Positions 29,013 to 45,605 of a stretch of 64,000 nucleotides of DNA are shown here, in pieces (the stretch's first letter is position 1; each line of letters opens with the position of its first letter). Under the pieces are notes generated by a model that was given only the letters and a program-made list of their open reading frames with translations, did not search any database and was not told the DNA's origin. This stretch comes from Vibrio sp. CB1-14 (GTDB lineage Bacteria; Pseudomonadota; Gammaproteobacteria; Enterobacterales; Vibrionaceae). The stretch covers positions 1,364,001 through 1,428,000 of the forward strand of contig NZ_CP115921.1 in the NCBI RefSeq assembly GCF_040412085.2, given 5' to 3'. A program made the position numbers and the translations under genes.

Positions 29013-29090
29013 TTGTAGCTCCTAGCCTTAAAGTAAGGAAATCCTTTCAATTTTTACAGTGTAGCAAGGGGTTATCATTATCCAAGTGCC

Positions 29091-29249
29091 CTAAGAAAAA
29101 CGTGGCCTTTCCCATACTTTAGCTAATCCGTTATATCCTAATTTAGTAATGTAACTGACAGGCTTTTGTCCAGAGCAGTACTGACCGAGGCATGTAATAC
29201 GAATTTGCTTCTTTCCGTGTTTCAAGTCATTCCCTTGCAAAAGGGAGTC
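29091..29249 (-). pseudogene. 52-codon open fragment without a start (possible gene remnant)
   Basis: Stop-bounded frame on minus that reads like protein: KHGKKQIRITCLGQYCSGQ, then KPVSYITKLGYNGLAKVWER and a stop. It lacks an ATG and is preceded by TGA. The balanced composition with two Cys suggests the 3' end of a lost gene inside the decaying segment. I recognise no family, and it could be chance. Confidence 0.3.
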
Positions 29250-29338
29250 TCATTCAGCGCGTTGCAAAGCTGACAGTCACTTGGTCGATGATTTTCAGAT
29301 ATCTACACGCGGTAAGAGAGCCTTACTTTTATGAGGAT

Positions 29339-29472
29339 GACGAATATATTGAAGGAAGATGGTTTGATAAAAAGGCTTCCCTAATAGTGAACTGGGTGAC
29401 TTATTGAAACTCTGCTTAGCGTAAAAGATTGAAGGGCTGGATAGTCTGGTTAAGTCCTTAAAACGCATGTAA
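29339..29472 (+). pseudogene. Broken 3' fragment of a second DUF3820 gene
   Basis: The fragment reads EGRWFDK, then after a -1 shift at an A5 tract (29369-29373) GFPNSELGDLLKLCLA, stop, KIEGLDSLVKSLKRM, stop. This matches the intact DUF3820 protein (GFPEGELGLLMALALEMK, then IEGLDSVIKPLKRM). It has lost its 5' half, carries a frameshift and an internal TAA, and directly precedes the intact 80-aa gene, mirroring the order at 24.0-24.3 kb. Confidence 0.75.
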
Positions 29473-29514
29473 CCTACCGAAGAAATACCATTTATTTAAA
29501 TAGAAAGAGTGACT

Positions 29515-29757
29515 ATGAATTTTGATATCAATGCATTGAAACACCACCAACTTGTCGAAGACGTCCCACTAGAGGGGTGTTACATTCATCAGCCAGCCAA
29601 AGGCAGTCAGCAAGACGACAAAGTGGTTATGGCGGAGCGTGAAGCGCTGGAAAAAATGGGGTTTAAAGTAATGCAGGTTCAAGCCAAGGGCGGAACAACC
29701 ACCTTTGCCGAGGCGATGCAAAAATTCGCGACAAAGACCGGGCACCAGCCAAAGTAA
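29515..29757 (+). CDS. Conserved-looking small protein, 80 aa (hypothetical)
   Basis: The protein MNFDINALKHHQLVEDVPLE... ends in KFATKTGHQPK; its middle is charged and helical (KVVMAEREALEKMGFKV). The ATG at 29515 has AAGAG five bases upstream; a GTG two codons earlier is a less likely start. Real-gene status is supported by a truncated homologue of its first 13 codons at 24272, which shows purifying-type similarity (mostly third-base changes). No family recognised. In the inferred ancestral order it followed a DUF3820 gene. Confidence 0.65.
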   Translation: MNFDINALKHHQLVEDVPLEGCYIHQPAKGSQQDDKVVMAEREALEKMGFKVMQVQAKGGTTTFAEAMQKFATKTGHQPK

Positions 29758-29923
29758 TAATTAAGGGCAGTCGAACTGGTTTTAATTATTGCGGATTGAG
29801 TGCTTTTTGTCTCACATTGGAATCCACGGGTATTTTCTACGATTTTAATGGCATTTTTCACAACGCTCCGTTCTTTAAATACTATCTTTATATGAAAGAC
29901 TTAGTATCGAGTGGAGACCAAAG

Positions 29924-32900
29924 ATGGTGCCAGTGCTTTATGTTCAGATGGGTGATGTGGTTTGGAAGGTGTTCCCCAATGGGACGTGGGAGCGCGTTGC
30001 ACCCGATGAGACTCTATTGGAGGGTGTTCAGGTCGTCAATCAACCCATCGTTGAACTGGGTGATGAAGGCACGCTGTCCTCAGAGCAAGTTGCCGCGATT
30101 GAAAAAGCACTGTCCGAAACGCTTAACGACCTTACAAGCAATATAGTCAGCCAACAAGGACAAGTTGACCTCAGCTCTGGAGGAAGTAGCGATAGTGCTG
30201 GTTTTGTGGTTTCAATTAAAGCCACGCTAGATGAGACAATAGCGCGCGCCGGGTTTGATACGCGGCCTAGTTCGGAGCCAGACGACGAGCGAAATTCAGA
30301 ACAAGCCTCACTAGATATCCTATCTGATCAAGCCAAATTAACGGTAGACATCCTTGATGGCGGCGACGGCTATGAAAACCAATTCGAAGTTCCCAGTGTC
30401 GTTATCCAAGGTACGGCAACAGACGTACGTGATGGGCGTATTGTGCTTATCACCGTCACTGACCAAGATGGCAATACCATTCAGTTGCAATCCATCACAA
30501 GCAATCAAGCCTACTCAGTTTCCGATGTTGATCTTTCTTCTTTAGTTGAAGGCCCTTTAAAGGTCGATGCCATTATCTCTGATGATTTTGGTAACAGTAT
30601 TACCGCTCAAGATACGACGATTAAAGACACGTTAGCCATTATCAACGTTGAACTGGACGGCTTTGGAGATGAGTTTGTTAACGCAGCAGAATCTCCCAAT
30701 GCAGCATTTACTGGTAAAACCGAATTTGTGGAGTCTGGACAAACTATCAATTGGGTGGTGACTGACGAACTTGGCGGCACGGTAACAGGAACTGCGTCCG
30801 TCACCGAATCTGGTCTTTGGAGCATTTCTAATCTTGATGTTTCTGGGCTCTCTGATGGTGTCCTTACGGTCGAAGCCTCCACCATAGATATAGCTGGAAA
30901 CCCGGCGGTCGCCACGGATACCATTGTCAAAGACACGCAGGCTGATATTACGGTGCAGTTTGAAGATATCGACGGCATTGTGAATGAAATTGAAATATCG
31001 GGTACCACGTTGTCAGGAACAGTGACCGATGTTGAAGATGGTCAAAGCGTCAATATCACCATATCTGGAAGCCAAGGTGACCCAATAAGTCTAACCACAA
31101 CGGTGGTCAATGGCGGCTGGACAATACTAGACGTTGACTTATCGAGGTTTGAAGATGGTGAGCTATCTGTCACCGCAACGACAGCAGACATCGCTGGGAA
31201 TCCTGCAACGACGACGGATACGTCTTTGGTCAATACCGTCAAGCCATTTATCGATATTGATACTTTGCAGGGTTTTAATATTCTTGCGTTTCGTGGCGGT
31301 ACTCTAACAAGTTTACAAGGCACAACCAATCTTGTTGAAGAAGGACTTCCTGTTACTGTCGTGGTCAGTGATGGGGTTTCTACACTTGAATTTCAAAGCG
31401 CCGTTGATGCCAACGGCGACTGGCTAGTCGTTGATATAGACGTTTCTAGTTTGGATCTTTCTGTTGAGTGGACTCTGGACGCTAAAGTTACTAATGCGAT
31501 AGGCAACTCCGCCATAGATGATATGCCGACGATAGTGTTACCTGAGTCGCTGACGTTCAGTGATACGGTGATTGGTATTTTTGGCAATCAAGAGAAAGAA
31601 TCGGATGTAAGAATTCAAGATGCTGAGTTTGTGTTCTTTGCTGATCAATCGCTGGTCGATGAACTGACATCTAACGGCCTTTCAATCACGGTTTCGGTAT
31701 CTGATTATCGAGTTATTGGGACTCGAAGCGATGGTGAAGTGGTCTTTGAAGCTAGTTTGAGCGGCGATCAAGTCGATGTCGCGTTCAAGCAAGTTATCGA
31801 CCAATCTCCAGATTTAAATTCGATACAGACAGCTCTTTTGATCCAAGGTACCCAAACGGATGCCGATGGCACAACAGAAGTCGTCATCGGGCATCTACCC
31901 ATCAACATAGCCGATATAGAGCCCCTTATTTTTGACGATTTTGCCTTCATGATCGAAGGCGAAGTTAAGTCTGGTAATGTGCTGAACAATGATATTGATC
32001 TTGATGGAGCATTGATTGTTTCTAGGGTGATTATCGATGGCTCGGAATACCCAGTGTCGGGCAGCACGCCTACCTTGATTTCTCTACCTGAAGGTGAGCT
32101 AAGCGTATTTGCGAATGGTCACTACAATTTTTCGGCCAATCGAAATTTAGATAACTCTGCTGGAAGGCAGAGAGTGAGCTTTGATTATGTAGCAGGTGAT
32201 CAAGAGAATGATTTTGGGCAAGGAACCGCGACGATATTTATCGATGATGGCGAGGCGGGGAGCATTGAATCTAGCAGTTACCAATATACCGAGCCCGACA
32301 GCAATCAAAGTCCACAAACTTTTGAAACCACCTTTTTAGTATCGCCAGGCTCTGACAATCCCGATCCCAATAGTCTCTATTTCTCGACTTCTACACTTAA
32401 CGTGCTCGACAGTTTAGGGTTAACCAGCGGTGCCAGCCCAATTCCTCTCACATACCAACTAAACGATGCTGGCAACACCGTTACTGCATCCATCAGTGGC
32501 AACACCGTGTTTACTCTAAGTTTATCGGGGCAAGTAACACCGTCGGATGCGACTTCTGTGACCGCTAACCTGACCATTACACAAGAGCGGCCACTCAATC
32601 AGCCCAACAAGAACGATTTGCTAAAACTGCCGCTGCTTATTGGCGGTAGAGACACCGATGGCACTGAGCTAGAACAAGGTGAGTTCACATTAATTATCGC
32701 TGATGGCTCTGATCCTATTCTAACCAGTATATCGAACGTATCGGTGTCGGAAGCCGAGCTCGCTTTTAATCCGGTTGTCGATATGGGGCTATTTCGCGTG
32801 GAGCTCGGCGCAGATGACCTCGATACTAATATGTCTCTCAATCCGTCACTGTTTTTTGATATCCAGGATCAGCCACAGGTTTGGAGTGATGGCCAACTCA

Positions 32901-35900
32901 TCACTTATACCATTGATGCAACAGGGGCGATTCTAACGGGCAATATCTTAGATGAAAATGACGACAAAATTCCTGTTTTTGAAATCGGCTTTTCACAAGC
33001 AAGTGCTGCTGTAGGAGGAGACGTTCCTTATACCTTTGTACTGCTACAAAATATCGATAATACCAGCGACCCACTGGAGATCCCCTTTATTGTGACCGCG
33101 AGAGATTCAGACGGCGATGAAGCGAAATTGACGCTCAACGTGAGTGTGTCTGATTCTGGCAATGCAACGCTTACAGGTTCTACGTTGACGGTTACCGAAC
33201 TCCCGCAGAAAACGACAATAACAGAAAGCAACTCTGATACTGCTAGCATTTCGATTACCGCAGCGCAAGATGACATAGTGGATATCGATCTCGCTATCAC
33301 TGCTGCAAGTCTAGTTCTTGATAGCTCAGGCAACGCCATTACGAGTAATGGATTGGATATCTTATGGCGTAATAATGGTGACAACAGCTATGACGCCGTC
33401 GATGAGAATGGCATGGTGGTATTTAGAGTCGCACTACCTGCTGAAATCGATATTCCTGCTTCTACGAATCAGTCTGTAGACATTGGGGTACGGCTTTTTA
33501 GAGAAATCGATCATGGCAGTGTGGGCGATATCGATGAGCTTTCCATCACTCTGCCTATTGTGGTAACGGATTTTGATGGCTCTCAGACCCAGCAAGATTC
33601 TACCTTAACCATATTAGACGGGCTTGATCCATCGATTGAAACCATTGCTCTGTCGGTAGCAGAAGCCAACCTCGAAGCTACAGGTGAAGTTGAGGTGATT
33701 CAATCGGATACGTTGACCTTTGTTCGTGGTTCAGATTCGATTGTTTCTTTTGACATCAATGTTAGTGATTTTGGCAGCTATCAAAGCGGGGGCGAAACGA
33801 TTGCTTTGGCCGAGCGAGATATCGATGGCTGGTTTATTGGTTCCACACAAAATACCAACCAAGAAGTCTTTCGATTGCGGTTAAATGTCGATGGCTCTGC
33901 GGAGTTTTTGCTGTTTAAACCTTTAGACCATCCGGCAGGTGATGGCGCGAACCTACTCAATTTACAGTTTCCTGTAGTTGCGACCGACAAAGATGGCGAT
34001 ACCTCAAGCCCTACAATGTTAACGGTTGAAGTTACAGATGATATTCCAACGTCAGGTACTGAACAAACGCTAGAAATTACTGAGGGTGACAGCTTTAGCG
34101 GCAACCTACTCAGTGCAACTCGCATTGGTGTTGATGGGGGTTCAATTACTGAGGTTCGTTACGAAGGTGTTGATTACGATTTTAGTACCACTGACCTTAT
34201 CTTCATTAACTTGACTAACGAGAACGACGCCAACTCAATATACGGCACATTGGAGTTAAAGTCGGATGGCAGTTACACCATCACCACAATCACCAATGTC
34301 GACGCTGATCCTGCTTTGGAAGATAGGATTCGTTTTACTGTAACGGACGGCGATGGCGATACGGTGTCTAACTTTGCCAACTTAATATTGGACGACATTG
34401 GCGGCTTTATCCGTGTCGAGAACACTGAAGTTCGCGAGGATGAGCTGGCTGGCGTCGATATCAAAGTGTTTGTTGGTGATATTGATCAAGGGGAAAATGT
34501 CACCGAAATCACCATTTCCAATTTACAAGGTGGAACCCTTTATTATGGTGGTGTTGAGCTCATTCCTGATGCTGGTGGGAGCGTTACCTTGACGGACGCG
34601 CAAATTATGCAGCAACCGGGACAAAATTATTTCGTGTCCGCTCTACCAATCACCTATTTGCCAAAACTTAATGAGTCGAATACCACGCTTACCTCAAATG
34701 TGGTGGCGCTGAGTGTTGGGGCGACCATTGCCAGAAATGGAATTGCGGATGAGATTGTCAGCAATCAAACTTTACAAGTGTCGGTACTACCCGTTGCCGA
34801 CACGCCAGAGTGGGGCAGTTCTCAGCTTGAATACGTTTTGACCGAAGATATAGGTCGTACTTTCCCATTAGATATTGATGCGTTATTGGTCGATACCGAC
34901 AGCTCTGAATCCCTGAGCTACCAAATCACCAATATACCGAGCGGCATCACGATAAAGCTGGATGGAAATAACATAGTCGAAGGCAAATCTTATACACAAA
35001 AGCAACTCGACCAAATGACGGTTACAGTGAAGAAAAACCTCGCTGGTGAGTTTAGTTTTGACCTCAAAGCCACCGCGACGGAAAAGGGCAGTGACTTTGC
35101 GCAAAGCTCAGATAAAACGGCCGACATTGACACTCCGGTAGTGATTAAAGTATCCCCTGATGCCGATACGCCAGAATTGTCGGTTCGTGACATTCGAGGG
35201 CTTGAAGACGTCAACATCGATTTGAGTGATGCGATTTTTGGCAGCTTAACGGATACCGATGGCTCGGAATCGTTGTTTTACGACATTGAAGTGCAAGATG
35301 GCTGGTCATTTACAGGAACGGGTTTTGTGCAAACAGGAACCAACTCTTATCGGGTTGAATCTGACGCGATAGCCAATGGCTCAGCGCTGTTAACACCAAA
35401 AGCAGACATTAGTTCCGTGACTGAGAGTTTGTTTATTAAAGTGTCTGCGGTTTCTGTTGAATCTACGATTGATGGTTTAACACCAGTGAATCAAGAAGCC
35501 AGCAGCGTAGAGAAAACCATCAACATTACCTTAAAAGGTGTCGTGGATGAGCCCATCGCTCAGGATGGCGGTAATGGCCATTGGCAGTATGATGCAGCCA
35601 ATAGAACCATAGAAACAGCGGCGTCGTTCTACGAAGATGGCTTGGTACCACTCGACTTTCTGTTTGTGACCTCTGATGATGATATATCAGAGTCTTTAAA
35701 TATCCTCATTACCAATATACCGGATGACATTGCCATTGTTGACAGCAGTGGGCAAGTTGTAGCACTGACAATCGCTGATCTAGACCCAGTAACTGGCCCT
35801 GTGTATCAGGTGAGTAATGCTGATTTAGCCAAACTGTTTGTAAAACCAAAATTAGACTTCAGTGGTCGCATTACTTTTGATGCCAATGTGGTTTCCACTG

Positions 35901-38900
35901 AGCCCGATGGTGATAGCGGCACATTCGACTACAAGGTACAAATTGATTTATTGCCAGAGGTTGACCAAAGCGATGGCGTCACTGTGGTGACAACAGGTCT
36001 TGAAGATAGGCAAATCGCTCTGGATTTAGAGCCTAGGATCAGCGGCGATAGTGATGGTAGTGAAACGCTGACAGGCTACTTCATAGACCCGCTGCCAAGT
36101 GACCTCACTTTACTGTTTGATGGATCTCCCATCTCTGTCCCAGCTACAGGCCTAGATCTTGAAGGGTTAATAGATAGTACGACACCAACTTTAGATTCAT
36201 TACTTAACAGTGGGCGCTTAAGTGTGCAAGCCACCCAGGACTTGAGTGGAACCTTTGTTATTCCAGTGCGGTATGAAGTAACTGATACCTCTGAACTTGG
36301 TGAAATTACGACTAAAATGATTTCAGGGTCACTTACCGTGGTAGTGGATGCGAAGGTTGAGGGGGACACTCGTCTCGAAACGTCATCGGAGGTCTTTATT
36401 AGTGACGATGGCCGTCCGGTTGATGTATCCGCTGCTGTTAGGTTTATTGAAGAAGATATCGATGGATCCGAATACCTTGACTACATCTTACTTCAGGTGC
36501 CCCAAGGCTACGATATTGTTGTTAATAGCGGCACAAATGAGGCACAGCAAACGCCAGATGGTAATTGGATTATACCTGCAGCAGGCTTAACCAGTGACAC
36601 AGTACAAGATGTGGCTGCGTTTATTCTCGACAATGTGACCATATCCAGTAATCAAGATACACCGGTTCTAGATATCGTTGTGCGAGCGAGAGTCATTGAT
36701 GGCGAAGACTCGCGTTATATTGACGGGGAATTTCAAATTCAGATTACCGGACACAGTGGTGGCGGTACGCCTTGTGATCCCGTTGGTCCTCCTGGGGAGA
36801 TCGAGTCTGAAGATGACATCACATTCGATGAAGGAACGGAAGTCTTAGATCTAGGGCAATACCTTGATCCAGACATTGCGAGCGATCCGGACAATGAGAT
36901 TTCGTTCTTTATTCCGTCAGACTCGCTACCTGATGATGTTGAACTAGAAGGTGATGGTGTGATTGCTGTATTTGATAACGATGGCGATATCATCGGCTAT
37001 TCAATCAGCCAGACAGGCCTGAGCAACCTTAAAATTACGGGTCTTGATGAAGATTTTGCAGGTTGTATTACTTTTGATATTGAAACGACTGAAACCTCAA
37101 CTTGTAACGGCTCTAGCTTAACGACTACGCAGACAGTTAGCATTGCAATTCGTCCTATCGTCGATGACATTATTCTGTCAACGGCATTTAGCCGCATTGA
37201 TGAGGACGTGGCTTCCGATCTTGATTTACAGTTGGTGCTTGGCGATTCAATTAAGCTTGATGGCAGTCAAACGGTCATCGGTGAAGGAGAATCGTCAACA
37301 GGTAAAGAAACCGCTAACTCGTTTACCATTCGAGTATCTGACGGAGCAACGCTCTCTGGCGACCCAAGCTGGTTAACCGACAACGGAGATGGCTCTTGGA
37401 CTGTGACAGATGTGACACGTTTACCGGATGTAGTACTCACACCTCCTACCCACTTTAGTGGCGAAATAACGTTAACTGCCGAAGTAAACATTACCGACAA
37501 AACCGATTGTTTAGCAGAAACCGATACCCAAACTAAAGTCGTGACAAAGGTCATCGAAATCAATCCGATTGTGGATCCTGCCAGTTTGGTGTCTGCGGAC
37601 TTCACTGGTGACGAAGATACTTATATTTCGCTGGCAAGTCTTGATGCAGAGCTGATTGACCAAGATGGCTCCGAAAATATGTCACTCAGTCTATCTGGGG
37701 TTCCCGAAGGTGCAGTGGTTGTGGTTCAAGTGGGGTCAAGCTTTGAGTTAGTGCCAAACAACGGAGTGGACGGAGGCAGTTTCAATGGCAAGCCAACGTA
37801 TGAGTGGCAGTTAGAGGCAAGCCAACTCGATAATACGTTTATATTACCGCCACTTGATTTTAGTGGGGACATTCCGTTGACACTCAAGGCCATTACTCAG
37901 GAGCTTGCAACCGGAGATACTAGGATTACAGAGTCAGCATTTACCCTAGGCGTTAATCCTATTGCCGATGAGATTGAGTTCTTTAACGCCCCAGAAAAGG
38001 TAAACGGCGACGAAGATGCCGTCATCGATATCCCTATTGATATCGTTTCCCAAGAGACCAATAGTGATGAATCTATCGCGCTATTGGTAACAGCAAAAGC
38101 TGTGAATGATTCCAGCTCAATTGATGATATCGCGAGTATTCGAATCGATGGAAAAACTGCACGATTTATCCAAGTTGGTGACAGTGCAACCGCTACTATT
38201 ATCGTAGCGGCAAGTTCAATTAATAGCATTGAGCTATTCGCTGGCGATGCCTTTGGCGATATTGACCTCACTATTCGTGCAGACGCAAGAGACACGGCCA
38301 CTGTACTCGGTTCCAATAAAGGCGACTTTGGCCCGATAAAACAAGAAACTATCCGATTAAAAATCACTCCGGAACCGGATGCCCCAATTTTAGATTTAAC
38401 TCATGACAACATTCTCGCCGAAGCGAGTAGCGATGCACCTTTAGGGTTGAGTTTTAACCTAGTGAATCCTGCTGCCGATGAACAGGGAATGCTAACCATA
38501 GAAGGGCTTCCAGATGAGGTAGAGCTTACTGCTGGGCAGCGAGTAGGCGATGATTGGGAGGTCTTACAAGGCGAGATTGCAGACTTGGCGATTAAAGCCG
38601 ATGACAATCTTCAAAATGATCTCAACTTTACCTTAATTCTAAAGCCTTCAGCAGAGCTCAAAGGCAATACCGCGGATGGGGCGGTAGAGACGATAGATGT
38701 TGAATGGTTTATCAAAGGCGATCAAACGCTGATCGGAAACTACCAGCGAGACTATATTTCAAGTGGAAGCGGTGATGACACCATCACTGGCGGGCTAAGC
38801 GCCGATACATTTGCATTTACTAATGAAGATATTGGTCTGTTGGCGCACACGGATATCATCACAGATTTCAATGCCAGTGCGAATAGCGACAGTATCGACC

Positions 38901-39139
38901 TCAGCCGAATCCTGTCTGCTACTAATGCTTCAGATGCAGAAAAGCAACTCGACTTAGTTGAGGTTGGCACCGACCTACGTATCGATTTAAGACCAAATGA
39001 AGGTCTGATTAGGCATCATATAGTGCTCGAAAACACCATATTGAACGATTTGTATGGCGGGGATGCGGCGGGTGTTTCTGAGAGCGATATTATTCAAAAA
39101 ATGCTGGATGACCAAAATCTTATTTTGTCGTCAAACTAG
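29924..39139 (+). CDS. Giant T1SS-secreted surface adhesin (LapA/BapA-like, 3071 aa)
   Basis: This is a cell-surface/biofilm adhesin exported by the type I secretion genes downstream. Residues 1-115 look like a LapA-type retention module (VWKVFPNGTWERVAPDETLL). Residues ~140-560 are Ig-like repeats (VKDTQADITVQFEDIDG; LVNTVKPFIDID). Residues ~640-770 and ~1410-1540 are VCBS/cadherin-like domains (GNVLNNDIDLDGALIV; FTVTDGDGDTV). From ~1650 to ~2700 a ~130-aa unit recurs around DxDGSExL, near residues 1656, 1777, 1915, 2042, 2176 and 2578, probably binding Ca2+. The C-terminus has a short RTX-type GSGDDTITGG followed by a VCA0849-class secretion signal (TDIITDFNASANSDSIDLS). There is no N-terminal signal peptide, as expected. 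GGAG lies eight bases before the ATG. The transporter gene follows after 19 bp. Confidence 0.9.
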   Translation: MVPVLYVQMGDVVWKVFPNGTWERVAPDETLLEGVQVVNQPIVELGDEGTLSSEQVAAIEKALSETLNDLTSNIVSQQGQVDLSSGGSSDSAGFVVSIKATLDETIARAGFDTRPSSEPDDERNSEQASLDILSDQAKLTVDILDGGDGYENQFEVPSVVIQGTATDVRDGRIVLITVTDQDGNTIQLQSITSNQAYSVSDVDLSSLVEGPLKVDAIISDDFGNSITAQDTTIKDTLAIINVELDGFGDEFVNAAESPNAAFTGKTEFVESGQTINWVVTDELGGTVTGTASVTESGLWSISNLDVSGLSDGVLTVEASTIDIAGNPAVATDTIVKDTQADITVQFEDIDGIVNEIEISGTTLSGTVTDVEDGQSVNITISGSQGDPISLTTTVVNGGWTILDVDLSRFEDGELSVTATTADIAGNPATTTDTSLVNTVKPFIDIDTLQGFNILAFRGGTLTSLQGTTNLVEEGLPVTVVVSDGVSTLEFQSAVDANGDWLVVDIDVSSLDLSVEWTLDAKVTNAIGNSAIDDMPTIVLPESLTFSDTVIGIFGNQEKESDVRIQDAEFVFFADQSLVDELTSNGLSITVSVSDYRVIGTRSDGEVVFEASLSGDQVDVAFKQVIDQSPDLNSIQTALLIQGTQTDADGTTEVVIGHLPINIADIEPLIFDDFAFMIEGEVKSGNVLNNDIDLDGALIVSRVIIDGSEYPVSGSTPTLISLPEGELSVFANGHYNFSANRNLDNSAGRQRVSFDYVAGDQENDFGQGTATIFIDDGEAGSIESSSYQYTEPDSNQSPQTFETTFLVSPGSDNPDPNSLYFSTSTLNVLDSLGLTSGASPIPLTYQLNDAGNTVTASISGNTVFTLSLSGQVTPSDATSVTANLTITQERPLNQPNKNDLLKLPLLIGGRDTDGTELEQGEFTLIIADGSDPILTSISNVSVSEAELAFNPVVDMGLFRVELGADDLDTNMSLNPSLFFDIQDQPQVWSDGQLITYTIDATGAILTGNILDENDDKIPVFEIGFSQASAAVGGDVPYTFVLLQNIDNTSDPLEIPFIVTARDSDGDEAKLTLNVSVSDSGNATLTGSTLTVTELPQKTTITESNSDTASISITAAQDDIVDIDLAITAASLVLDSSGNAITSNGLDILWRNNGDNSYDAVDENGMVVFRVALPAEIDIPASTNQSVDIGVRLFREIDHGSVGDIDELSITLPIVVTDFDGSQTQQDSTLTILDGLDPSIETIALSVAEANLEATGEVEVIQSDTLTFVRGSDSIVSFDINVSDFGSYQSGGETIALAERDIDGWFIGSTQNTNQEVFRLRLNVDGSAEFLLFKPLDHPAGDGANLLNLQFPVVATDKDGDTSSPTMLTVEVTDDIPTSGTEQTLEITEGDSFSGNLLSATRIGVDGGSITEVRYEGVDYDFSTTDLIFINLTNENDANSIYGTLELKSDGSYTITTITNVDADPALEDRIRFTVTDGDGDTVSNFANLILDDIGGFIRVENTEVREDELAGVDIKVFVGDIDQGENVTEITISNLQGGTLYYGGVELIPDAGGSVTLTDAQIMQQPGQNYFVSALPITYLPKLNESNTTLTSNVVALSVGATIARNGIADEIVSNQTLQVSVLPVADTPEWGSSQLEYVLTEDIGRTFPLDIDALLVDTDSSESLSYQITNIPSGITIKLDGNNIVEGKSYTQKQLDQMTVTVKKNLAGEFSFDLKATATEKGSDFAQSSDKTADIDTPVVIKVSPDADTPELSVRDIRGLEDVNIDLSDAIFGSLTDTDGSESLFYDIEVQDGWSFTGTGFVQTGTNSYRVESDAIANGSALLTPKADISSVTESLFIKVSAVSVESTIDGLTPVNQEASSVEKTINITLKGVVDEPIAQDGGNGHWQYDAANRTIETAASFYEDGLVPLDFLFVTSDDDISESLNILITNIPDDIAIVDSSGQVVALTIADLDPVTGPVYQVSNADLAKLFVKPKLDFSGRITFDANVVSTEPDGDSGTFDYKVQIDLLPEVDQSDGVTVVTTGLEDRQIALDLEPRISGDSDGSETLTGYFIDPLPSDLTLLFDGSPISVPATGLDLEGLIDSTTPTLDSLLNSGRLSVQATQDLSGTFVIPVRYEVTDTSELGEITTKMISGSLTVVVDAKVEGDTRLETSSEVFISDDGRPVDVSAAVRFIEEDIDGSEYLDYILLQVPQGYDIVVNSGTNEAQQTPDGNWIIPAAGLTSDTVQDVAAFILDNVTISSNQDTPVLDIVVRARVIDGEDSRYIDGEFQIQITGHSGGGTPCDPVGPPGEIESEDDITFDEGTEVLDLGQYLDPDIASDPDNEISFFIPSDSLPDDVELEGDGVIAVFDNDGDIIGYSISQTGLSNLKITGLDEDFAGCITFDIETTETSTCNGSSLTTTQTVSIAIRPIVDDIILSTAFSRIDEDVASDLDLQLVLGDSIKLDGSQTVIGEGESSTGKETANSFTIRVSDGATLSGDPSWLTDNGDGSWTVTDVTRLPDVVLTPPTHFSGEITLTAEVNITDKTDCLAETDTQTKVVTKVIEINPIVDPASLVSADFTGDEDTYISLASLDAELIDQDGSENMSLSLSGVPEGAVVVVQVGSSFELVPNNGVDGGSFNGKPTYEWQLEASQLDNTFILPPLDFSGDIPLTLKAITQELATGDTRITESAFTLGVNPIADEIEFFNAPEKVNGDEDAVIDIPIDIVSQETNSDESIALLVTAKAVNDSSSIDDIASIRIDGKTARFIQVGDSATATIIVAASSINSIELFAGDAFGDIDLTIRADARDTATVLGSNKGDFGPIKQETIRLKITPEPDAPILDLTHDNILAEASSDAPLGLSFNLVNPAADEQGMLTIEGLPDEVELTAGQRVGDDWEVLQGEIADLAIKADDNLQNDLNFTLILKPSAELKGNTADGAVETIDVEWFIKGDQTLIGNYQRDYISSGSGDDTITGGLSADTFAFTNEDIGLLAHTDIITDFNASANSDSIDLSRILSATNASDAEKQLDLVEVGTDLRIDLRPNEGLIRHHIVLENTILNDLYGGDAAGVSESDIIQKMLDDQNLILSSN

Positions 39140-39158
39140 TAAGCAGTAAGGATGTGCA

Positions 39159-41306
39159 GTGGAAGTGTCAAAAAGGGACAATTGGCTAGAAGCGATTAAA
39201 TGGTTGTGCCAGTACCATGAGGTGCGTTGTCACCCGGTTAAAATAGTCAGTGGACTACCGTTAGATGATGGGCAGCTATCAGAGCCCCTCTTTTTAAGAG
39301 CGTTGGAAAGCACGCCACTTCTGGCGCTTGAGCTCAATGCGCGTGAAGTAGCGAAAGCAAGCACGCCATTTGTGATGATAGACAGTAAAAACGAACAGCC
39401 TTTGATCATCACCAAAGTAACGGGGCAGCGCGTCACTTTACTTGAAGTCGCTGAGGAGTTTAAACAGAAGGAAATAACCCTAGATGCACTTCGCCAATTG
39501 AGTAAAGGGATACTGTGGCAAGTAAGTGGAGATTCCACTATCGATAGCCGAGTTGAGGAGCTTAAACCTTCTACACCCACCAGTTGGCTGTGGAAAACGA
39601 TAAAGGAAGTTCGCCCTTGGTATCGTGACTTAATGTTGGCATCGTTTGTCATTAACTTGCTGGCTCTCATTGTCCCGTTATTTACCATGAATGTGTACGA
39701 TCGCGTGGTGCCTAATCAAGCAATGAGTACCCTGTGGGTGCTGGCTGCAGGAGTAATGATCGTTGTTGTGTTTGATTGGATATTAAAAGAAGCTCGAAGC
39801 TCTGTGACAGATATGGCTGGGCGCTATATCGACAATAAACTCTCAGCGACACTGTTCTCAAAAACCATCGGTATGAAGTTAGAAAATCGTCCTCAATCAA
39901 CAGGGGCGTTTGCGCGTCAGTTACAAGACTTTGATGCAGTAAAAGAGTTCTTTACTTCCGTGACGCTGGTGACCTTGGTGGATTTGCCGTTTACCTTTTT
40001 ATTCCTAGTTTTAATTGGCTGGCTTGGCGGCGCCATGATGTGGATCCCTGTTGTGGTTATGGGATTGCTCGTCGGTGTCAGTGTGCTAATGAAACGTAAT
40101 GTTGAGAGCACGCTAGAAGAGACATCGCGATTGTCTACTCAACGTCAAGCACAGTTGATTGAAACCCTAAACGCCCTACCTGAAATTAAACAAAACAATG
40201 CTCAAAGCTTGCTGCAAAAGCGCTGGGAAAGCGTTATTTCTTCCTTATCGACATGGCAAACGCGCTCGCGTACATACACCAATATAGTCACTCATTGTAT
40301 TCAATCTAGCCAGCAAGTAGTGACGGTGTCACTTATCGTATTTGGCGTCTATCAGATAGGAGCCGGAGTACTCACCATGGGTGGCTTGATTGCTATTGTG
40401 ATGTTGAGTGGTCGAGCGGGAAACGCAATTAATCAGTTATCGATGTTAGTGCTGCGCTATCAGCAGTCCAAAACTGCGTTGGTCGGTTTAAATCAAATCA
40501 TGGAATTACCGCAAGAGGCCAGTGATCAACAAGTGATCGACCGAGGGGAATTTCAAGGCAACGTCAAACTCAGCAATGTGGGCTATCTATACCCGGAAGC
40601 AACCTCAGCGGCAGTGAGTGACATTAATGTCAACATTCAAGCGGGAGAGCGCATTGGTGTGATTGGATCTGCGGGTGCTGGTAAATCAACGTTATTGTCA
40701 CTGCTTCTCAAGCAGGTCGAGCCTAGCAGCGGACAAATCTACTTCGAAGGACTTGATGCCAAATTATGGCCACATAGTGTGGTGCGCAAAGCATCCGGTT
40801 GGGTGGCGCAAAGTAGTGTACTGATGTTTGGATCGGTATTGGAAAATATTGTGTTTGGTGAGTCTAGTATTGATGAGCAGCGGCTCGGTTACGCTATTCA
40901 ATACTCGGGACTAAATGACTATTTATCACGCCTTGAAAACGGCTTAGAAACTCAAGTTGGTGAGGGCGGCCGACATTTATCGGGGGGGCAACGTCAGGCG
41001 GTGGCACTAGCAAGAGCGCTCTACCGTCAACCTAAGTTTCTTGTTCTTGATGAGCCGACCAGCGCACTAGATAATCAAGCTGAACGACGCTTCTACCAAG
41101 CATTAGCACGTATGCCACGTAGCATGACCATAGTAATGAGTTCACATCGTCAGTCGCTCTTGTCGTTGTGCGACAGAGTTTTAGTGCTTGAGAAAGGCAA
41201 ACTCGTCATGGACGGTCCACCAAAGTCTATTCTGGAAACACCAAGTAAGCAAAAACACAAAGTGAAGAACATCGCTATCGTCAAAGGAGGTAACGATGAG
41301 CACTAG
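39159..41306 (+). CDS. Type I secretion ABC transporter (LapB-like)
   Basis: A 715-aa fused permease-ATPase that exports the adhesin. The N-terminal ~125 residues are a C39-peptidase-like domain lacking the catalytic Cys context, so it probably binds rather than cleaves substrate, as in LapB/HlyB. A six-helix membrane domain spans about 155-430 (FVINLLALIVPLFTMNVYDRVVP). The ATPase has Walker A GSAGAGKST, signature LSGGQRQA and Walker B FLVLDEPTSALD. The start is GTG with AAGGA six bases upstream; no ATG fits the domain start. It overlaps the next gene by 11 bp. Partners are the HlyD-type protein and TolC-like channel just downstream. Confidence 0.9.
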   Translation: MEVSKRDNWLEAIKWLCQYHEVRCHPVKIVSGLPLDDGQLSEPLFLRALESTPLLALELNAREVAKASTPFVMIDSKNEQPLIITKVTGQRVTLLEVAEEFKQKEITLDALRQLSKGILWQVSGDSTIDSRVEELKPSTPTSWLWKTIKEVRPWYRDLMLASFVINLLALIVPLFTMNVYDRVVPNQAMSTLWVLAAGVMIVVVFDWILKEARSSVTDMAGRYIDNKLSATLFSKTIGMKLENRPQSTGAFARQLQDFDAVKEFFTSVTLVTLVDLPFTFLFLVLIGWLGGAMMWIPVVVMGLLVGVSVLMKRNVESTLEETSRLSTQRQAQLIETLNALPEIKQNNAQSLLQKRWESVISSLSTWQTRSRTYTNIVTHCIQSSQQVVTVSLIVFGVYQIGAGVLTMGGLIAIVMLSGRAGNAINQLSMLVLRYQQSKTALVGLNQIMELPQEASDQQVIDRGEFQGNVKLSNVGYLYPEATSAAVSDINVNIQAGERIGVIGSAGAGKSTLLSLLLKQVEPSSGQIYFEGLDAKLWPHSVVRKASGWVAQSSVLMFGSVLENIVFGESSIDEQRLGYAIQYSGLNDYLSRLENGLETQVGEGGRHLSGGQRQAVALARALYRQPKFLVLDEPTSALDNQAERRFYQALARMPRSMTIVMSSHRQSLLSLCDRVLVLEKGKLVMDGPPKSILETPSKQKHKVKNIAIVKGGNDEH

Positions 41307-42621
41307 TCATATCGAGTGGAGCAACACCCAGTTAGCGTACCGTTCACGCAGGCTTATTTGGATTATCGCCAGTTTATTTGTCAGTGCTTTGCTTTGGGCA
41401 TCTTGGGCGACGCTTGAAGAAGTCGTCGTGGGAGAGGGCACTGTGGTGCCAAGCCAGTCGGTACAATCGATACAAAGTTTGGAAGGTGGGATTGTAAAAA
41501 ACATACTGGTGCGTCAAGGGGACAGTGTTAAGGCTGGGCAAAGCTTAGCAGTATTGGATGACACTCGTTTTCGCGCTTCCTATCAAGAGACAGGCAAGCA
41601 ATTTGATAGCCTGACTGCTCAGCGGTTGAGATTGGAAGCGGAGCTGGCGAGCGTCAAAGTAACCAGTAGCAACAACTGGCAAACACAAGTTCAAATTGAG
41701 CCTCGTTCAATCATCGGTGCAGATAACCCCAGCCCAGCTTTGTTTAATGCTCAAGCTAACTATCTGGAGAGATTGAGTCAGTTATCATCCGAACTTGAAG
41801 AATCAAAACTACGAATCGAGCAACAAGCCCAAGCCGTCAGTGATACTCAAACCTCTATTCGAACCTTACAAAGCAGTCTCGCTATTGTGGAAAAAGAGCG
41901 CGATTTGCTGCGCGTAGTAGTGGAAAGCGGTGCAGTAGCGGAAGTTGAGTTATTGAAACTAAATCGAGATGTCATTCGTCTTGAGGGCGATTTATCGAGT
42001 GCTCGTGTCACCGAGCAAAAGCAACGAGCGGCCTATTCTGAGGCGATTGCGGATCACCGTGGGATTGCTCTGGACTTTCGAACTAAAGCGCAAGGCCAAT
42101 TAAATGAAATATCCGCCACACTTGCCCAACTGAATGAGAGCCGCCAGGCAATCGCTGATCAATTGAGGCGTACCGATGTCGTTGCTCCAGTAGATGGTAC
42201 TGTGAAAGAAGTGTTTGTTCGCACCATAGGTGGCGTCGTTCGTCCAGGTGAACCCATTATGGAATTGGTGCCAGAAAACTCGGCACTCATCATTGAAGCT
42301 AAGATCGCGCCCCAAGATATTGCTTTTATTTCAGTAGGTTTAGAGGCAATGGTGAAGTTTTCGGCCTATGATTTTGTTATCTACGGCGGACAAAAAGGCA
42401 AAGTGACCTATGTGAGTGCTGATGCATTGCAAACTGAAGACGGGACGGCCTACTACCGAGCGCACATAGAATTGAATAATCAACAAGATCAAGAGGCGAA
42501 CTTTTCTGTAATACCGGGTATGCAAGCCGCAGTGGACATTCTTACTGGCGAAAAAACGGTGTTGCAATATTGGCTTAAGCCAATCTTAAGAGCAAAAGAG
42601 AATTCATTGAGAGAAAGATAA
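41296..42621 (+). CDS. T1SS membrane-fusion protein, HlyD family (LapC-like)
   Basis: A 441-aa periplasmic adaptor bridging the ABC transporter and the outer-membrane channel. A short cytoplasmic N-terminus and one membrane helix (about 20-40) are followed by a lipoyl half-motif (LEGGIVKNILVRQGDSVKAG), a long coiled-coil hairpin (about 95-275), the second half-motif (VVAPVDGTVKEVFVRTIGGV) and a beta-barrel C-terminal domain. GGAGG five bases before the ATG lies inside the end of the transporter gene. The 11-bp overlap implies translational coupling. Confidence 0.92.
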   Translation: MSTSHIEWSNTQLAYRSRRLIWIIASLFVSALLWASWATLEEVVVGEGTVVPSQSVQSIQSLEGGIVKNILVRQGDSVKAGQSLAVLDDTRFRASYQETGKQFDSLTAQRLRLEAELASVKVTSSNNWQTQVQIEPRSIIGADNPSPALFNAQANYLERLSQLSSELEESKLRIEQQAQAVSDTQTSIRTLQSSLAIVEKERDLLRVVVESGAVAEVELLKLNRDVIRLEGDLSSARVTEQKQRAAYSEAIADHRGIALDFRTKAQGQLNEISATLAQLNESRQAIADQLRRTDVVAPVDGTVKEVFVRTIGGVVRPGEPIMELVPENSALIIEAKIAPQDIAFISVGLEAMVKFSAYDFVIYGGQKGKVTYVSADALQTEDGTAYYRAHIELNNQQDQEANFSVIPGMQAAVDILTGEKTVLQYWLKPILRAKENSLRER

Positions 42622-42639
42622 TAACCATAAGGAAAGCGT

Positions 42640-43971
42640 ATGCGTGTGACAAAACTCGTGCTATCGAGTTGCCTTGCTATCACCCCTCTAGCGTTGACTC
42701 CGGCTGCGAGCGCTATTTCTCTGGAACAGTCTGTAGCGTTTGCGATTGATTACAGTCCAGAAGTTTTAGCGCAATATTCTCGATATCAATCCGTTATCAG
42801 AGATGGTGATGCTGCTGGTGGTGACCGATTACCACAAGTGAATTTGTATGCCGCAGCGGGTGTAGAGGAAACCCGATATAACAACGGTAACTTCATAGAC
42901 CCAGACGATAGACGACTTAATCGAACAGAGATGGGTGTGCGTGTTTCTCAGCTTTTGTTTGATGGGTTTGGTACTAGCGCCAATGTTAAGCGTTTGGGCT
43001 ATGAAGCTGAAGCAGAGCGCTTGACGTTGATATCCCGCGCTGAAAACGTCTCCCTGGATGTCACCAGAACGTATCTTGAGCTTTTAGAGGCTGAAACTCT
43101 GTTGCAATTAGCTAACCGCAACGTGCTTGAGCATCAAGAAATCTATAAAGATGTACTCGACAAAAAAGGCCAAGGACTAGCGAGTAATTCGGACTTAGCC
43201 CAGATTTCCGCTCGAGTGGCAACAGCGCAATCGTCACAAATTGCGGCACAAAATAACCTGTTTGACCTCAAAACCCAATTTCTACGCCAAGTTGGCAAGC
43301 CCGGCAGTGACCTAGTCCTTCCCAAATTTGATAGCGCACTACTTCCCAGCACTTTAGATGTTGCTATTCAACAAGCGGTCGACAACCACCCGGAGATTAA
43401 AGCGGCCATGATAGACATGGACGCCGCGAGGCAAGAAATACGACGCGAAAAAGGGGACTATTTCCCAGAGGTTAAAATTGAGTTGCATGCCAACAAAAAT
43501 CGCAACGTGGGTAATGTCATCGGGCCGGATGAAGACATGCGCGCCATGCTGACCTTAGATTATGACCTATTCAACGGCTTTTCGACCGATGCTAGAGTTG
43601 AATCTTCCGCATGGCGATTGGAAGAGGCGCGAGCCATACGTGTAAGAACTGAGCGTGAAGTGCGCGAAGGCACAGAACTCGCTTGGAATGCCTATTCGAT
43701 GCTAGAGCAGCAAATAAGACTTTTGGAGCAAAATGTGGACGCGGCAAAAATAGCCGAGCTCGGCTATATACAGCAGTTCAATGTCGGGCGTCGCAGCTTA
43801 CTTGATGTACTTGATGCCAAGGTGGAAGTGTTTCTTGCGAGACAAAACTACGTGAGAAGTAAATACGATAGGACCTTTGCAGCTTATCGATTGCTTAATG
43901 CGATGGGAGTGTTGACGTACGCGTTGCGCGTCGAGCATCCAGAAGAGTGGCAGAAAGAGGGGGAGTCATAA
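42640..43971 (+). CDS. TolC-family outer-membrane channel (LapE/AggA-like)
   Basis: A 443-aa outer-membrane efflux protein forming the exit duct of the adhesin secretion system. The signal peptide ends near residue 25 (ASA). Two OEP repeats follow, with the typical phrases GVRVSQLLFDGFGTSANV, DVTRTYLELLEAETLL, LTLDYDLFNGFSTDARV and QFNVGRRSLLDVLDAKVE. AAGGAAA precedes the ATG by five bases. Its stop overlaps the start of the OmpA-family gene (TAATG), so all components appear to be made from one message. Confidence 0.92.
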   Translation: MRVTKLVLSSCLAITPLALTPAASAISLEQSVAFAIDYSPEVLAQYSRYQSVIRDGDAAGGDRLPQVNLYAAAGVEETRYNNGNFIDPDDRRLNRTEMGVRVSQLLFDGFGTSANVKRLGYEAEAERLTLISRAENVSLDVTRTYLELLEAETLLQLANRNVLEHQEIYKDVLDKKGQGLASNSDLAQISARVATAQSSQIAAQNNLFDLKTQFLRQVGKPGSDLVLPKFDSALLPSTLDVAIQQAVDNHPEIKAAMIDMDAARQEIRREKGDYFPEVKIELHANKNRNVGNVIGPDEDMRAMLTLDYDLFNGFSTDARVESSAWRLEEARAIRVRTEREVREGTELAWNAYSMLEQQIRLLEQNVDAAKIAELGYIQQFNVGRRSLLDVLDAKVEVFLARQNYVRSKYDRTFAAYRLLNAMGVLTYALRVEHPEEWQKEGES

Positions 43972-44609
43972 TGAAGCTAACAGTGAAGACTTTGTCTTTC
44001 GTGCTAACGCTGTGTTTGCCCTTATCCCTGCTCATCGGTTGTGCTGAAACGCCAAACACACAAACCACTCGTCATCAGATTGATGATTTACGCGATCAAG
44101 ACAGTGATGGCATCATCAATCAGCGTGATCGCTGCTTGGATACTCCAACTGGTGTTGTTGTCGATAATGAAGGCTGTGCAGAATGGCAGTTTTCAGAGAA
44201 GCCTGTTGTGGTTACGGTCAACTTTGATTACGACAAATCGCTGATACGTCCCGATCAAGAGCCAAAGGTATCTGAACTCTCAAATATGCTCAAACAAACT
44301 CCACAAGCTAGTGTGGTGTTAATTGGAGATACCAGTTCCGAAGGCACTAACGATTATAACCGCGCCTTAGCTAAGCGCAGAACGGCAGCGATTAAAGAAG
44401 CGCTGGAGCAGAAAGGCATTGATAGCACACGAGTCTCAGAGCAGGAGTTTACCGAGGTGACGTTTTACACCGAAAAGCTCAAGCAACGTAAACGCCGAAC
44501 CATTGCAGTGTTCTATCATCCTGAAATGTCAGCCACTCAGCAGTGGGATATTTTTACTTCAGAGAAAAGTTTGACCAGTTCAAGTAGTGTGGAGGCGCCT
44601 CGTGACTAA
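43971..44609 (+). CDS. OmpA-family lipoprotein with thrombospondin type-3 repeat
   Basis: A 212-aa outer-membrane lipoprotein. The chosen ATG overlaps the channel gene stop and has GGGGGAG seven bases upstream. The signal ends in the lipobox LLIGC. Next is an acidic calcium-binding TSP3-type loop (DLRDQDSDGIINQRDRC) and then an OmpA_C peptidoglycan-binding domain (VNFDYDKSLIRPDQEPKV, AKRRTAAIKEAL). OmpA-like genes occur at the same position in LapA/BpfA-type operons, presumably anchoring the secretion or adhesin complex to the cell wall. Its end overlaps the next gene by 8 bp. Confidence 0.88.
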   Translation: MKLTVKTLSFVLTLCLPLSLLIGCAETPNTQTTRHQIDDLRDQDSDGIINQRDRCLDTPTGVVVDNEGCAEWQFSEKPVVVTVNFDYDKSLIRPDQEPKVSELSNMLKQTPQASVVLIGDTSSEGTNDYNRALAKRRTAAIKEALEQKGIDSTRVSEQEFTEVTFYTEKLKQRKRRTIAVFYHPEMSATQQWDIFTSEKSLTSSSSVEAPRD

Positions 44610-45531
44610 GACTTTTAAAGCGCTCAGCGCAACAGCACTCTCTTGTGGGATGATGGCCTCGCCATTGCTATCAGCAGAGACATTAGATGCGCAGCATTCT
44701 AAAGTGGCCGTTGAACCCAATCTCGTACCGCTTATGGAAGCCTTGATACAAGCTAGGAAACTTGATATTGATGTCCAGGCCAGTGAAGATATCGCGACAA
44801 GTTTAACCAAAGATAATCTGCTACTCGGTATCAGTTCACGTAAATGGCAAGATGATGAAGTGGCAAAGTTTACCCATTTGAGAGGTTACAAACCTACCGA
44901 GCTTTTTTTTACCGCTGACGTTATCGCCATTATTGCCAATCAAGACAATCCGGCCAAAGCCGTAACCCTTGCTGAGCTCAAGGACGTTTTTGGTTGCAAC
45001 CAGCAGCTTAACGTCACTCGCTGGCGTGATAGTCAAGGTACAGAGCTTGGCGCCATGGTTCCATTAGCTATCGACAATCAACTAAAGGGGCATGGTACGT
45101 TTGCCAAGTGGGTTGCGTGCGACAATGCTGAGTTTTCGACGACTAATTTTGTTATCGACAAGCCTGCATTGCTAAGTGAAATCTCGGCGCAGTCAGATGC
45201 GATTGGTTACTCGGTTTACACCGACGATCTTAACGATCAAAACTTGCTAAATGTCATCAATAACTTTGGTGAGTCGTACGATGTGAATAAAGAAACCATT
45301 TTGTCGGGACGCTATCCACTGGCGAGTGTTTACTACATGTACCTTGACTTGCCACCGAACCGAGAACATTTTAATCAGCAGGAAGAATACTTTATCAGTC
45401 TGACGCTGTCTGATGAGCCAAAGCCAACATTAAACCAATTTGGCTTTATCAGCTTGCCGCCAGAGGCAATACAGCGCAATAAAGTTCGTCTGCGTTTAAC
45501 AGAGCCGATGATTGAAGGCGGTTACAAATAA
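44602..45531 (+). CDS. PstS-like periplasmic binding protein in the adhesin operon
   Basis: A 309-aa protein with a signal peptide (ending LSA-ET) and the fold features of phosphate-type binding proteins (PBP_like_2): LLLGISSRKW, VIAIIANQDNPAKAVTLAEL with KDVFG, a degenerate GTELGAM loop, DAIGYSVYTDD, GRYPLASVYYMYL and GFISLPP. The classical phosphate-binding Ser/Thr-Gly-Ser pocket is not obvious, so phosphate binding is uncertain. Start GTG at 44602 with GGAGG six bases upstream; it overlaps the OmpA gene. No transporter genes accompany it, so a sensor or accessory role in adhesin export is more likely than uptake. In related operons this position holds the LapG/LapD-type control genes. Confidence 0.8.
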   Translation: MTKTFKALSATALSCGMMASPLLSAETLDAQHSKVAVEPNLVPLMEALIQARKLDIDVQASEDIATSLTKDNLLLGISSRKWQDDEVAKFTHLRGYKPTELFFTADVIAIIANQDNPAKAVTLAELKDVFGCNQQLNVTRWRDSQGTELGAMVPLAIDNQLKGHGTFAKWVACDNAEFSTTNFVIDKPALLSEISAQSDAIGYSVYTDDLNDQNLLNVINNFGESYDVNKETILSGRYPLASVYYMYLDLPPNREHFNQQEEYFISLTLSDEPKPTLNQFGFISLPPEAIQRNKVRLRLTEPMIEGGYK

Positions 45532-45568
45532 TCAATCTGGTTATATTTATCACCGCAGTAAGACTAAG

Positions 45569-45605
45569 ACAGCTTCTTGGATTCTCTCTTCAAGAGGCTG
45601 TTTTT
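45569..45605. terminator. Terminator at the end of the adhesin operon, overlapping the tetR 3' end
   Basis: ACAGCTTCTTG (45569-45579) pairs with CAAGAGGCTGT (45591-45601) with one G-T wobble, then T5. It ends the adhesin operon on plus. Its right arm overlaps the last codons of the convergent tetR-type gene. Confidence 0.75.

What the first reader, a model, noticed from the sequence alone, without database searches (positions are those of the whole stretch)
29924..45531. Adhesin/T1SS operon ends in a PstS-like binding protein where LapG/LapD-type control genes are expected
The order adhesin, ABC exporter, HlyD protein, TolC-like channel and OmpA lipoprotein resembles the Shewanella bpf and Pseudomonas lap loci. 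As I recall the Shewanella operon, OmpA is followed by a LapG-like protease (bpfG) and a LapD-like c-di-GMP receptor (bpfD). Here all six genes are overlapped or closely spaced (11-bp, 1-bp and 8-bp overlaps, and 18-19-bp gaps), but the sixth encodes a stand-alone periplasmic binding protein of the phosphate type with no transporter. This suggests a ligand-sensing accessory, perhaps coupling phosphate or another anion to adhesin release or export. Phosphate control of LapA via c-di-GMP is known in Pseudomonas, but the link here is inference.
Basis: partly seen in the sequence, partly recalled or inferred. Interest (0 to 1): 0.7.

Follow-up and report, generated by a model that had tools for sequence, protein, structure and literature searches.

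The report
Binding-protein relic in adhesin secretion operon
A marine Vibrio builds and exports a giant adhesion protein with a fixed set of helper genes, and the last helper looks like a phosphate-binding protein that has lost its binding pocket, and in some related bacteria most of one of its two lobes, so it probably works as a structural part rather than as a phosphate sensor.

Summary
Six co-directional genes (giant T1SS adhesin, LssB-type ABC exporter, HlyD, TolC-like channel, OmpA lipoprotein, PstS-like protein) lie at 29924-45531 and end in a terminator-like hairpin. The sixth gene is a constant part: 42 of 42 assessable TolC-orthologous loci in 227 genus genomes carry it, and 29 of 30 named loci found with it show all six genes. 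No lapG is linked where tested; this genome keeps a separate Lap locus. But LapG control is not expected here: none of 38 adhesin N-termini of this family, nor 12 from sister operons, has a LapG di-alanine site. Phosphate sensing is disfavoured: P-loop and lobe-2 phosphate contacts are lost, and in Motilimonas and Psychromonas the sixth gene is a ~180-residue protein lacking most of the second lobe, yet keeping lobe-1 motifs and the C-terminal EGG(Y/H)(K/R) tail. TolC and HlyD trees fit one gain and one lobe loss. Best reading: a PstS-derived, ligand-independent periplasmic accessory of a LapG-independent adhesin secretion/retention machine. Its contact partner is inferred, not shown.

The parts
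29924..39139 (+). Giant T1SS adhesin, 3071 aa: short N-terminal module, T1SS-143 and other repeats, one weak RTX nonapeptide stretch, VCA0849-type C-terminal secretion target
29924..30268 (+). N-terminal module of the adhesin (about residues 1-115, ending AGFDTRP); no LapG-type [TPAS]AAG site; only a weak match to NCBIfam retention_LapA (13.6 bits, cut-off 50)
39159..41306 (+). Type I secretion ABC exporter, LssB subfamily (TIGR03375)
41296..42621 (+). HlyD-family periplasmic adaptor (TIGR01843)
42640..43971 (+). TolC-family outer-membrane channel (TIGR01844)
43971..44609 (+). OmpA-domain lipoprotein (ORF opens at 43947; probable ATG start 43971; lipobox LLIGC read by eye)
44602..45531 (+). 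Sixth gene: PstS-fold pseudo-binding protein with a likely signal peptide (ORF opens at 44587; probable GTG start 44602)
   Evidence: 309-aa homologue; signal peptide by eye
44992..45303 (+). Stretch of the sixth gene with no counterpart in the Motilimonas/Psychromonas mini proteins (about residues 136-239 of the 314-residue ORF, most of the second lobe; the edges are uncertain by about 20 residues)
45514..45528 (+). Conserved C-terminal tail EGGYK of the sixth protein, kept with small changes in full-length and mini forms
45566..45604 (+). Terminator-like hairpin 34 bp after the sixth gene (16-pair stem, T-rich 3' arm)

Best explanation
The sixth gene encodes a PstS-derived protein that most likely no longer binds phosphate and has become a dedicated periplasmic accessory of this adhesin's own type I secretion/retention machine. 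Shown: co-inheritance with the operon, loss of phosphate-contact motifs, loss of most of the second lobe in one sister clade, and conservation of lobe-1 motifs and the C-terminal tail. Inferred: it works by protein-protein contact through lobe 1 and the tail, most likely with the OmpA lipoprotein and/or the TolC channel and adhesin N-terminal module at the outer-membrane portal, helping to assemble the machine or to hold the exported adhesin there without LapG control.
For: Constant operon member: of 43 TolC-orthologous loci in 227 genus genomes, 40 carry the orthologue 598-1025 bp downstream, two more (G009, G095) carry a 26-27% identical version in place, and one (G082) stops at a contig end; 29 of 30 named loci, found by the sixth protein itself, have all six genes in order. 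Pocket loss: the PhoX phosphate ligands are Ser34, Ser62, Asp80, Arg159, Gly164, Thr165, Asn201 (PMC5439949, passage); against this genome's own PstS all 9 family rows lack the P-loop serine/threonine motif and the RxxxSGT loop, the GSST turn is not kept (P0010 retains GS), the SR serine is kept in 9 of 9 and the Asp in 8 of 9. Mini proteins: 14 proteins of 131-212 aa, none with precomputed Pfam domains; hhalign full against 13 minis 98.8%, E 1.3e-16, 174 columns, control against OmpA 0.9%; the HMM of the full family hits the four operon-borne minis at E 2.8e-7 to 3.7e-11 and the mini HMM hits full-length proteins at E 7.5e-12 to 1.7e-18. TolC and HlyD trees: the full group (16 rows) and the mini group (4 rows) are each one side of a branch with 100/97 or better support. 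No LapG site: 0 of 38 and 0 of 12 N-termini, while the large adhesin near this genome's lap locus has PAAG. OmpA and the adhesin C-terminus show the largest extra divergence between operons with and without the sixth gene (ratios 1.30 and 1.23 against 1.13-1.17 for ABC, HlyD, TolC), a weak pointer to the partner.
Against: No contact was tested and no complex was modelled. Relatives with the same five genes do without a sixth gene (8 of 12 assessable sister loci, and G193), so it is not essential to export as such. G029 keeps an intact-looking ompA and sixth gene after losing the T1SS genes, so the pair may have another use. The divergence ratios are small and confounded by clade. The AlphaFold model of the mini protein was poor (pLDDT 54.7), so its fold is not confirmed; minis gave no significant match to a PstS sequence or PDB chain on their own. 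The full-length form keeps both lobes in most lineages, with an invariant Cys pair and conserved segments in or next to lobe 2, which a pure lobe-1 role does not explain.
Confidence: 0.55

Rival explanations
1. The sixth protein is a phosphate (or similar oxyanion) sensor that couples ligand level to adhesin export or release.
Against: P-loop and RxxxSGT phosphate contacts absent in all 9 rows aligned; most of the second lobe is missing in Motilimonas/Psychromonas; TIGR02136 scores 79.8 against a cut-off of 206.6; no Pho-box-like site directly upstream of the adhesin.
Confidence: 0.06
2. The full-length protein binds some other small ligand (amino acid, sugar fragment, metal) and signals to the adhesin machine; the mini clade lost this and kept only the docking part.
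For: Most lineages keep a two-lobed protein with strongly conserved residues, including invariant C137 and C178 in lobe 2 and the ETILSGRYPLA segment.
Against: G009 and G095 have an eroded second lobe (280 and 286 aa, ligand-loop region deleted), and the mini clade has little of it. No ligand is indicated by any relative found.
Confidence: 0.17
3. The sixth protein is a general assembly or folding factor for the neighbouring outer-membrane lipoprotein or channel, not part of the working machine.
For: It follows ompA with an 8-bp overlap; OmpA divergence tracks its presence most (ratio 1.30); G029 keeps ompA and the sixth gene as a pair.
Against: Paralogous and sister OmpA proteins do without it.
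Confidence: 0.19
4. A passenger gene kept by chance in the operon.
For: Eight of 12 assessable sister operons and G193 lack it.
Against: Kept in 42 of 42 assessable TolC-orthologous genus loci and in Photobacterium and Agarivorans; invariant motifs; a mini form kept in the same position in two further genera.
Confidence: 0.03

Closest known systems
bpf/lap-type RTX adhesin operons (adhesin, T1SS, OmpA, LapG, LapD)
   Same: Giant adhesin with its own ABC, HlyD and TolC-like channel (layout of the full bpf operon recalled); an ompA follows tolC; homologous OmpA (26-33%) and TolC (36-45% over the fragments read) in 12 paralogous loci.
   Different: No lapG found linked, no di-alanine LapG site, a divergent N-terminal module, and a PstS-like or mini gene, or nothing, after ompA.
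V. cholerae LapDG with FrhA and CraA (Kitts et al. 2019, PMC6890996, passages read)
   Same: CraA also carries T1SS-143 repeats, like this adhesin.
   Different: LapG cuts PAAG in FrhA and AAAG in CraA; none of the N-termini of this family that I read has such a site.
PstS/PhoX phosphate-binding proteins (P. aeruginosa 4omb, X. citri PhoX)
   Same: Fold, PF12849, and a Cys pair also seen in the phoBR-linked PstS of this genome.
   Different: P-loop and lobe-2 phosphate contacts lost, no permease genes, conserved C-terminal tail, mini forms without most of lobe 2.
P. aeruginosa PstS with a phosphate-independent biofilm role (Neznansky et al. 2014; title seen only in a reference list)
   Same: By its title, a PstS protein linked to biofilm without phosphate; the sequence-closest solved chains here are 4omb/4pqj (their link to that paper is recalled).
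   Different: That protein still serves phosphate uptake (recalled); this family is operon-bound to a T1SS adhesin and has lost pocket motifs.

Membership tests
LapG/LapD-controlled (lap/bpf) adhesin system | lapG and lapD linked to the operon | tested here: not met
   No LapG hit (BLAST E 1e-5, own LapG as query) in 30 named stretches (up to 10 kb each side of the sixth gene), in 16 stretches of 9-13 kb upstream of adhesins, or in 14 sister loci on either side; LapD matches there are 22-27% to GGDEF/EAL-type proteins. LapG and LapD of this genome lie in another locus.
LapG/LapD-controlled (lap/bpf) adhesin system | Di-alanine LapG site near the adhesin N-terminus | tested here: not met
   0 of 38 N-termini in the first 150 aa; control: the adhesin near this genome's lap locus has PAAG.
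LapG/LapD-controlled (lap/bpf) adhesin system | LapA-type retention module (NF033682) | tested here: not met
   13.6 bits, E 0.058, cut-off 50 bits; residues 46-114 only; a distant version of the module is not excluded.
Type I secretion giant adhesin operon | ABC, HlyD and TolC-like genes with a T1SS C-terminal target in the adhesin | tested here: met
   TIGR03375, TIGR01843, TIGR01844, TIGR03661 all over cut-off.
PstS phosphate-binding proteins | PstS-type fold | tested here: met
PstS phosphate-binding proteins | Conserved phosphate-contact residues | tested here: not met
   P-loop and RxxxSGT motif absent in 9 of 9 family rows aligned; SR serine kept in 9 and Asp in 8 (ligand list from PMC5439949).
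PstS phosphate-binding proteins | Linked pstC/pstA/pstB | tested here: not met
   None next to it; TetR, GST and DJ-1 genes follow. Two other PF12849 proteins of the genome do have permease- and ATPase-like genes beside them.
PstS phosphate-binding proteins | Phosphate binding in vitro | not testable with these tools
   Needs a binding assay.

The most novel reading that the evidence does not exclude
A two-lobed solute-binding protein was recruited once as a fixed, ligand-free part of a LapG-independent giant-adhesin secretion/retention machine, taking the operon position after ompA that LapG-LapD hold in the paralogous bpf-type operon, and was then cut down to little more than a single lobe in the Psychromonas/Motilimonas lineage: a new kind of adhesin-holding accessory made from half a binding protein.
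Probability: 0.4. Interest if true: 0.75.

Novelty: new variant of a known kind. Interest (0 to 1): 0.6.

Why it matters
It marks a branch of giant-adhesin secretion systems that by sequence should not use LapG release, with an unrecognised accessory family (its members carry names such as PstS-family protein or hypothetical protein). If the accessory holds or assembles the adhesin, it would help answer how LapG-independent adhesins are retained, and it would be a clear case of a binding protein turned into a scaffold by losing its pocket and then most of a lobe. Genome annotations that call it PstS are then misleading.

Tried and rejected
Phosphate regulon: pattern CTGTCATNNNNCTGTCAT with up to 3 mismatches gave 11 window matches (6.2 expected; 3 of 100 shuffles reach 11), none in 29000-29924. 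Conserved upstream regulator: no match to the divergent SBP_bac_3/HD-GYP gene or its 161-aa neighbour in 16 stretches of 9-13 kb upstream of other adhesins (one of them, G344, may lie partly inside the adhesin); only the small ORF hyp82 recurs, in L098/L214 and L099/L215. So this c-di-GMP neighbour is not a fixed part. Literature: searches showed no paper in their listings that I recognised as being on a PstS-like protein in a T1SS adhesin operon; only listings, and passages of four papers (PMC6890996, PMC12758282, PMC9040878, PMC5439949), were seen, and the library is open-licence PMC only. The Neznansky paper itself was not found in the listings. PDB search with the mini profile gave 4omb as best at E 0.044, not significant; hhalign of minis against one PstS sequence was not significant. 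The mini AlphaFold model (fed with full-length homologues) is too poor to use and was not searched. In the first OmpA divergence run the L055 OmpA row was wrong; redone, where ABC has 15 full and 9 none rows because ORFs under 600 aa were dropped. A link between the adhesin AGF motif and the sixth gene was considered and dropped: G118 and G048 break it. Limits: genome searches score only the best few candidates per genome (7, 5, 4), so paralogues can be missed.
Full report
1. The observation. Family searches identify a giant adhesin with T1SS-143 repeats and a VCA0849-type secretion target, an LssB-type ABC exporter, HlyD, a type I TolC, an OmpA-domain lipoprotein, and a protein with one PBP_like_2 domain. 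A strong hairpin with a T-rich arm follows the sixth gene (z -4.2), though the simple terminator scan did not list it. The upstream divergent genes are an SBP_bac_3/HD-domain protein and an unassigned 161-aa protein; downstream are TetR, GST, DJ-1, a hexapeptide transferase and a PAS-GGDEF-EAL gene.

2. Is the sixth gene constant? In 227 genomes of the genus, 42 have a tight orthologue (E 5.6e-63 or better); apart from two fragments (G086, G216) the next listed match is at 5.6e-27, and these weaker ones are probably ordinary PstS. TolC orthologues (E 2.1e-147 or better; next 3.6e-116) are in 43 genomes. In 40 of the 43 the sixth gene lies 598-1025 bp downstream on the same strand. G009 and G095 have a more divergent version (26-27% identity) in place; G082 is cut by a contig end. 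So 42 of 42 assessable loci carry it, counting frameshifted copies (G086, G015). Two genomes have the sixth gene without a TolC orthologue (G061, G029), and G216 has a fragment; I read these as remnants, and G061 and G029 have transposase-like ORFs nearby (by eye). Among 30 named loci of Vibrio, Photobacterium and Agarivorans, which were found with the sixth protein as query, 29 show all six genes in order; L042 (V. gelatinilyticus) keeps only ompA and the sixth gene.

3. LapG and LapD. The genome has one LapG, in a separate locus with lapB-, lapD-, lapG- and lapC-like genes and a large adhesin close by (LapD named by eye). That adhesin carries PAAG in its N-terminus. With own LapG as query there is no hit in the 30 named stretches (which end inside the adhesin upstream), in 16 further stretches of 9-13 kb upstream of adhesins, or in 14 sister loci on either side; weak LapD matches (22-27%) there are to GGDEF/EAL-type proteins. 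The window adhesin and its relatives lack the LapG site: 0 of 38 N-termini (window, L098-L126, L132-L139, out of 51 genomes with a hit; L101 is frameshifted and L104, from G022, has no operon) have [TPAS]AAG in 150 residues. Sister operons likewise: 0 of 12 readable N-termini in 250 residues; G300 and G435 were not readable. V. cholerae LapG needs a di-alanine, PAAG or AAAG (PMC6890996, passages). The NCBIfam retention module scores 13.6 bits against a cut-off of 50. So this adhesin family is by sequence not a LapG substrate.

4. Among 18 relatives searched for Peptidase_C93 (17 with a match, 22 matches, 20 loci given), 12 of 20 loci show TolC-OmpA-LapG-LapD in a row, including G330, G344 and G356, which also have the sixth gene with a TolC orthologue (only G344 read in full). 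The recalled layout is thus borne out, and the two operons are paralogous.

5. Sister operons. Nine show none; one of these (L177) ends 228 bases after ompA, so 8 of 12 assessable lack it. HMMs of both forms find nothing at E 1 or better in these nine or in G193.

6. The mini proteins. They share LSSxxWsDxxxAdYxxxxGxxPxxL, FS(G/T)RxGxxLlYLY and NxVxLGl with an FEGGY(R/K)-like end with the full-length family. Profile comparison gives 98.8%, E 1.3e-16, across 174 columns, with about 104 residues of lobe 2 skipped in one block plus shorter gaps; the OmpA control gives 0.9%. The HMMs cross-match both ways: full-family HMM to minis E 2.8e-7 to 3.7e-11, mini HMM to full-length proteins E 7.5e-12 to 1.7e-18. 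A profile search found 14 proteins including the seeds, none with precomputed Pfam domains, the named ones called hypothetical protein; operon context was read for four. The model of the full-length protein (pLDDT 84.3) has long strands at 104-117 and 246-253; the missing block lies between them, where the second lobe of this fold sits (topology partly recalled; PMC5439949 describes a hinge strand in PhoX, passage). At most about 25 of some 128 residues of that region remain, so I infer that no proper cleft exists.

7. The pocket. Against this genome's own PstS proteins, the P-loop and the RxxxSGT loop are replaced in all 9 family rows aligned; in G009 and G095 the latter is deleted. The GSST turn is not kept, though P0010 retains GS. 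The serine of SR is kept in 9 of 9 and the Asp in 8 of 9. An acidic residue (E43, 90% or more) sits in the P-loop position by my reading; MAFFT places this stretch with a gap, so that column is uncertain. The sequence-closest solved chains are the P. aeruginosa-type phosphate binding proteins 4omb and 4pqj (E 5e-19; organism recalled).

8. History. Trees of TolC and HlyD from 30 operons put the 16 full-length operons on one side of a branch and the 4 mini operons on one side of another, with support of 100/97 or better. In the TolC tree the 10 operons without a sixth gene also group; in the HlyD tree one long row (G305) moves and they need two changes. The simplest history is one gain before the split and one loss of lobe 2. 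The root is a midpoint, so direction is inferred.

9. Mechanism. Shown: fixed co-inheritance, no LapG site in the N-termini read, degenerate pocket, a form without most of lobe 2. Inferred: a structural or assembly part of the periplasmic side of the machine, using lobe 1 and the C-terminal tail, which is conserved although its last three residues have pLDDT under 50. OmpA and the adhesin C-terminus show the largest extra divergence between operons with and without the gene, which weakly favours OmpA or the adhesin as partner.

10. Verdict. Observation confirmed; the phosphate-sensing idea is disfavoured; the absence of LapG/LapD is a family trait of this T1SS branch rather than a replacement proven here. 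Listings of the literature searches did not show this system in print (open-licence library only).

Noticed in passing
25834-29012 (-): Divergent from the adhesin: a periplasmic SBP_bac_3 sensor joined to HD domains (HD-GYP-like, probable c-di-GMP phosphodiesterase) with an unassigned 161-aa gene before it; no match in 16 stretches of 9-13 kb upstream of other adhesins.
   Followed up: partly
29509-29757 (+): Small 82-aa ORF just upstream of the adhesin; kept beside the adhesin in L098 and L099 and near the remnant in L091.
   Followed up: no
48617-50395 (+): PAS-GGDEF-EAL protein a few genes downstream of the operon.
   Followed up: no
L204:7734-9704, L205:5835-7739, L207:6221-8311: In three sister operons of the Shewanella-like group (name inferred) a protein 25% identical to LapD lies about 1.2 kb upstream of the adhesin on the same strand, with no LapG hit in the stretch read; a c-di-GMP link of those operons is not excluded.
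   Followed up: no
L130:5763-6677 (-): Another stand-alone PBP_like_2 protein with intact-looking phosphate motifs and no transporter genes beside it (by eye).
   Followed up: no
L089:13440-15022: G029 keeps intact-looking ompA and sixth gene although no adhesin, ABC, HlyD or TolC match of this system is in the 19 kb read.
   Followed up: partly
L002 and L127: Vibrio-type Lap locus (lapC, lapG, lapD, lapB) with a PAAG adhesin close by on the same replicon.
   Followed up: yes
L038, L039, L040: Draft V. maritimus/V. variabilis copies of the operon are split by apparent frameshifts or stops in several genes, perhaps assembly error.
   Followed up: no
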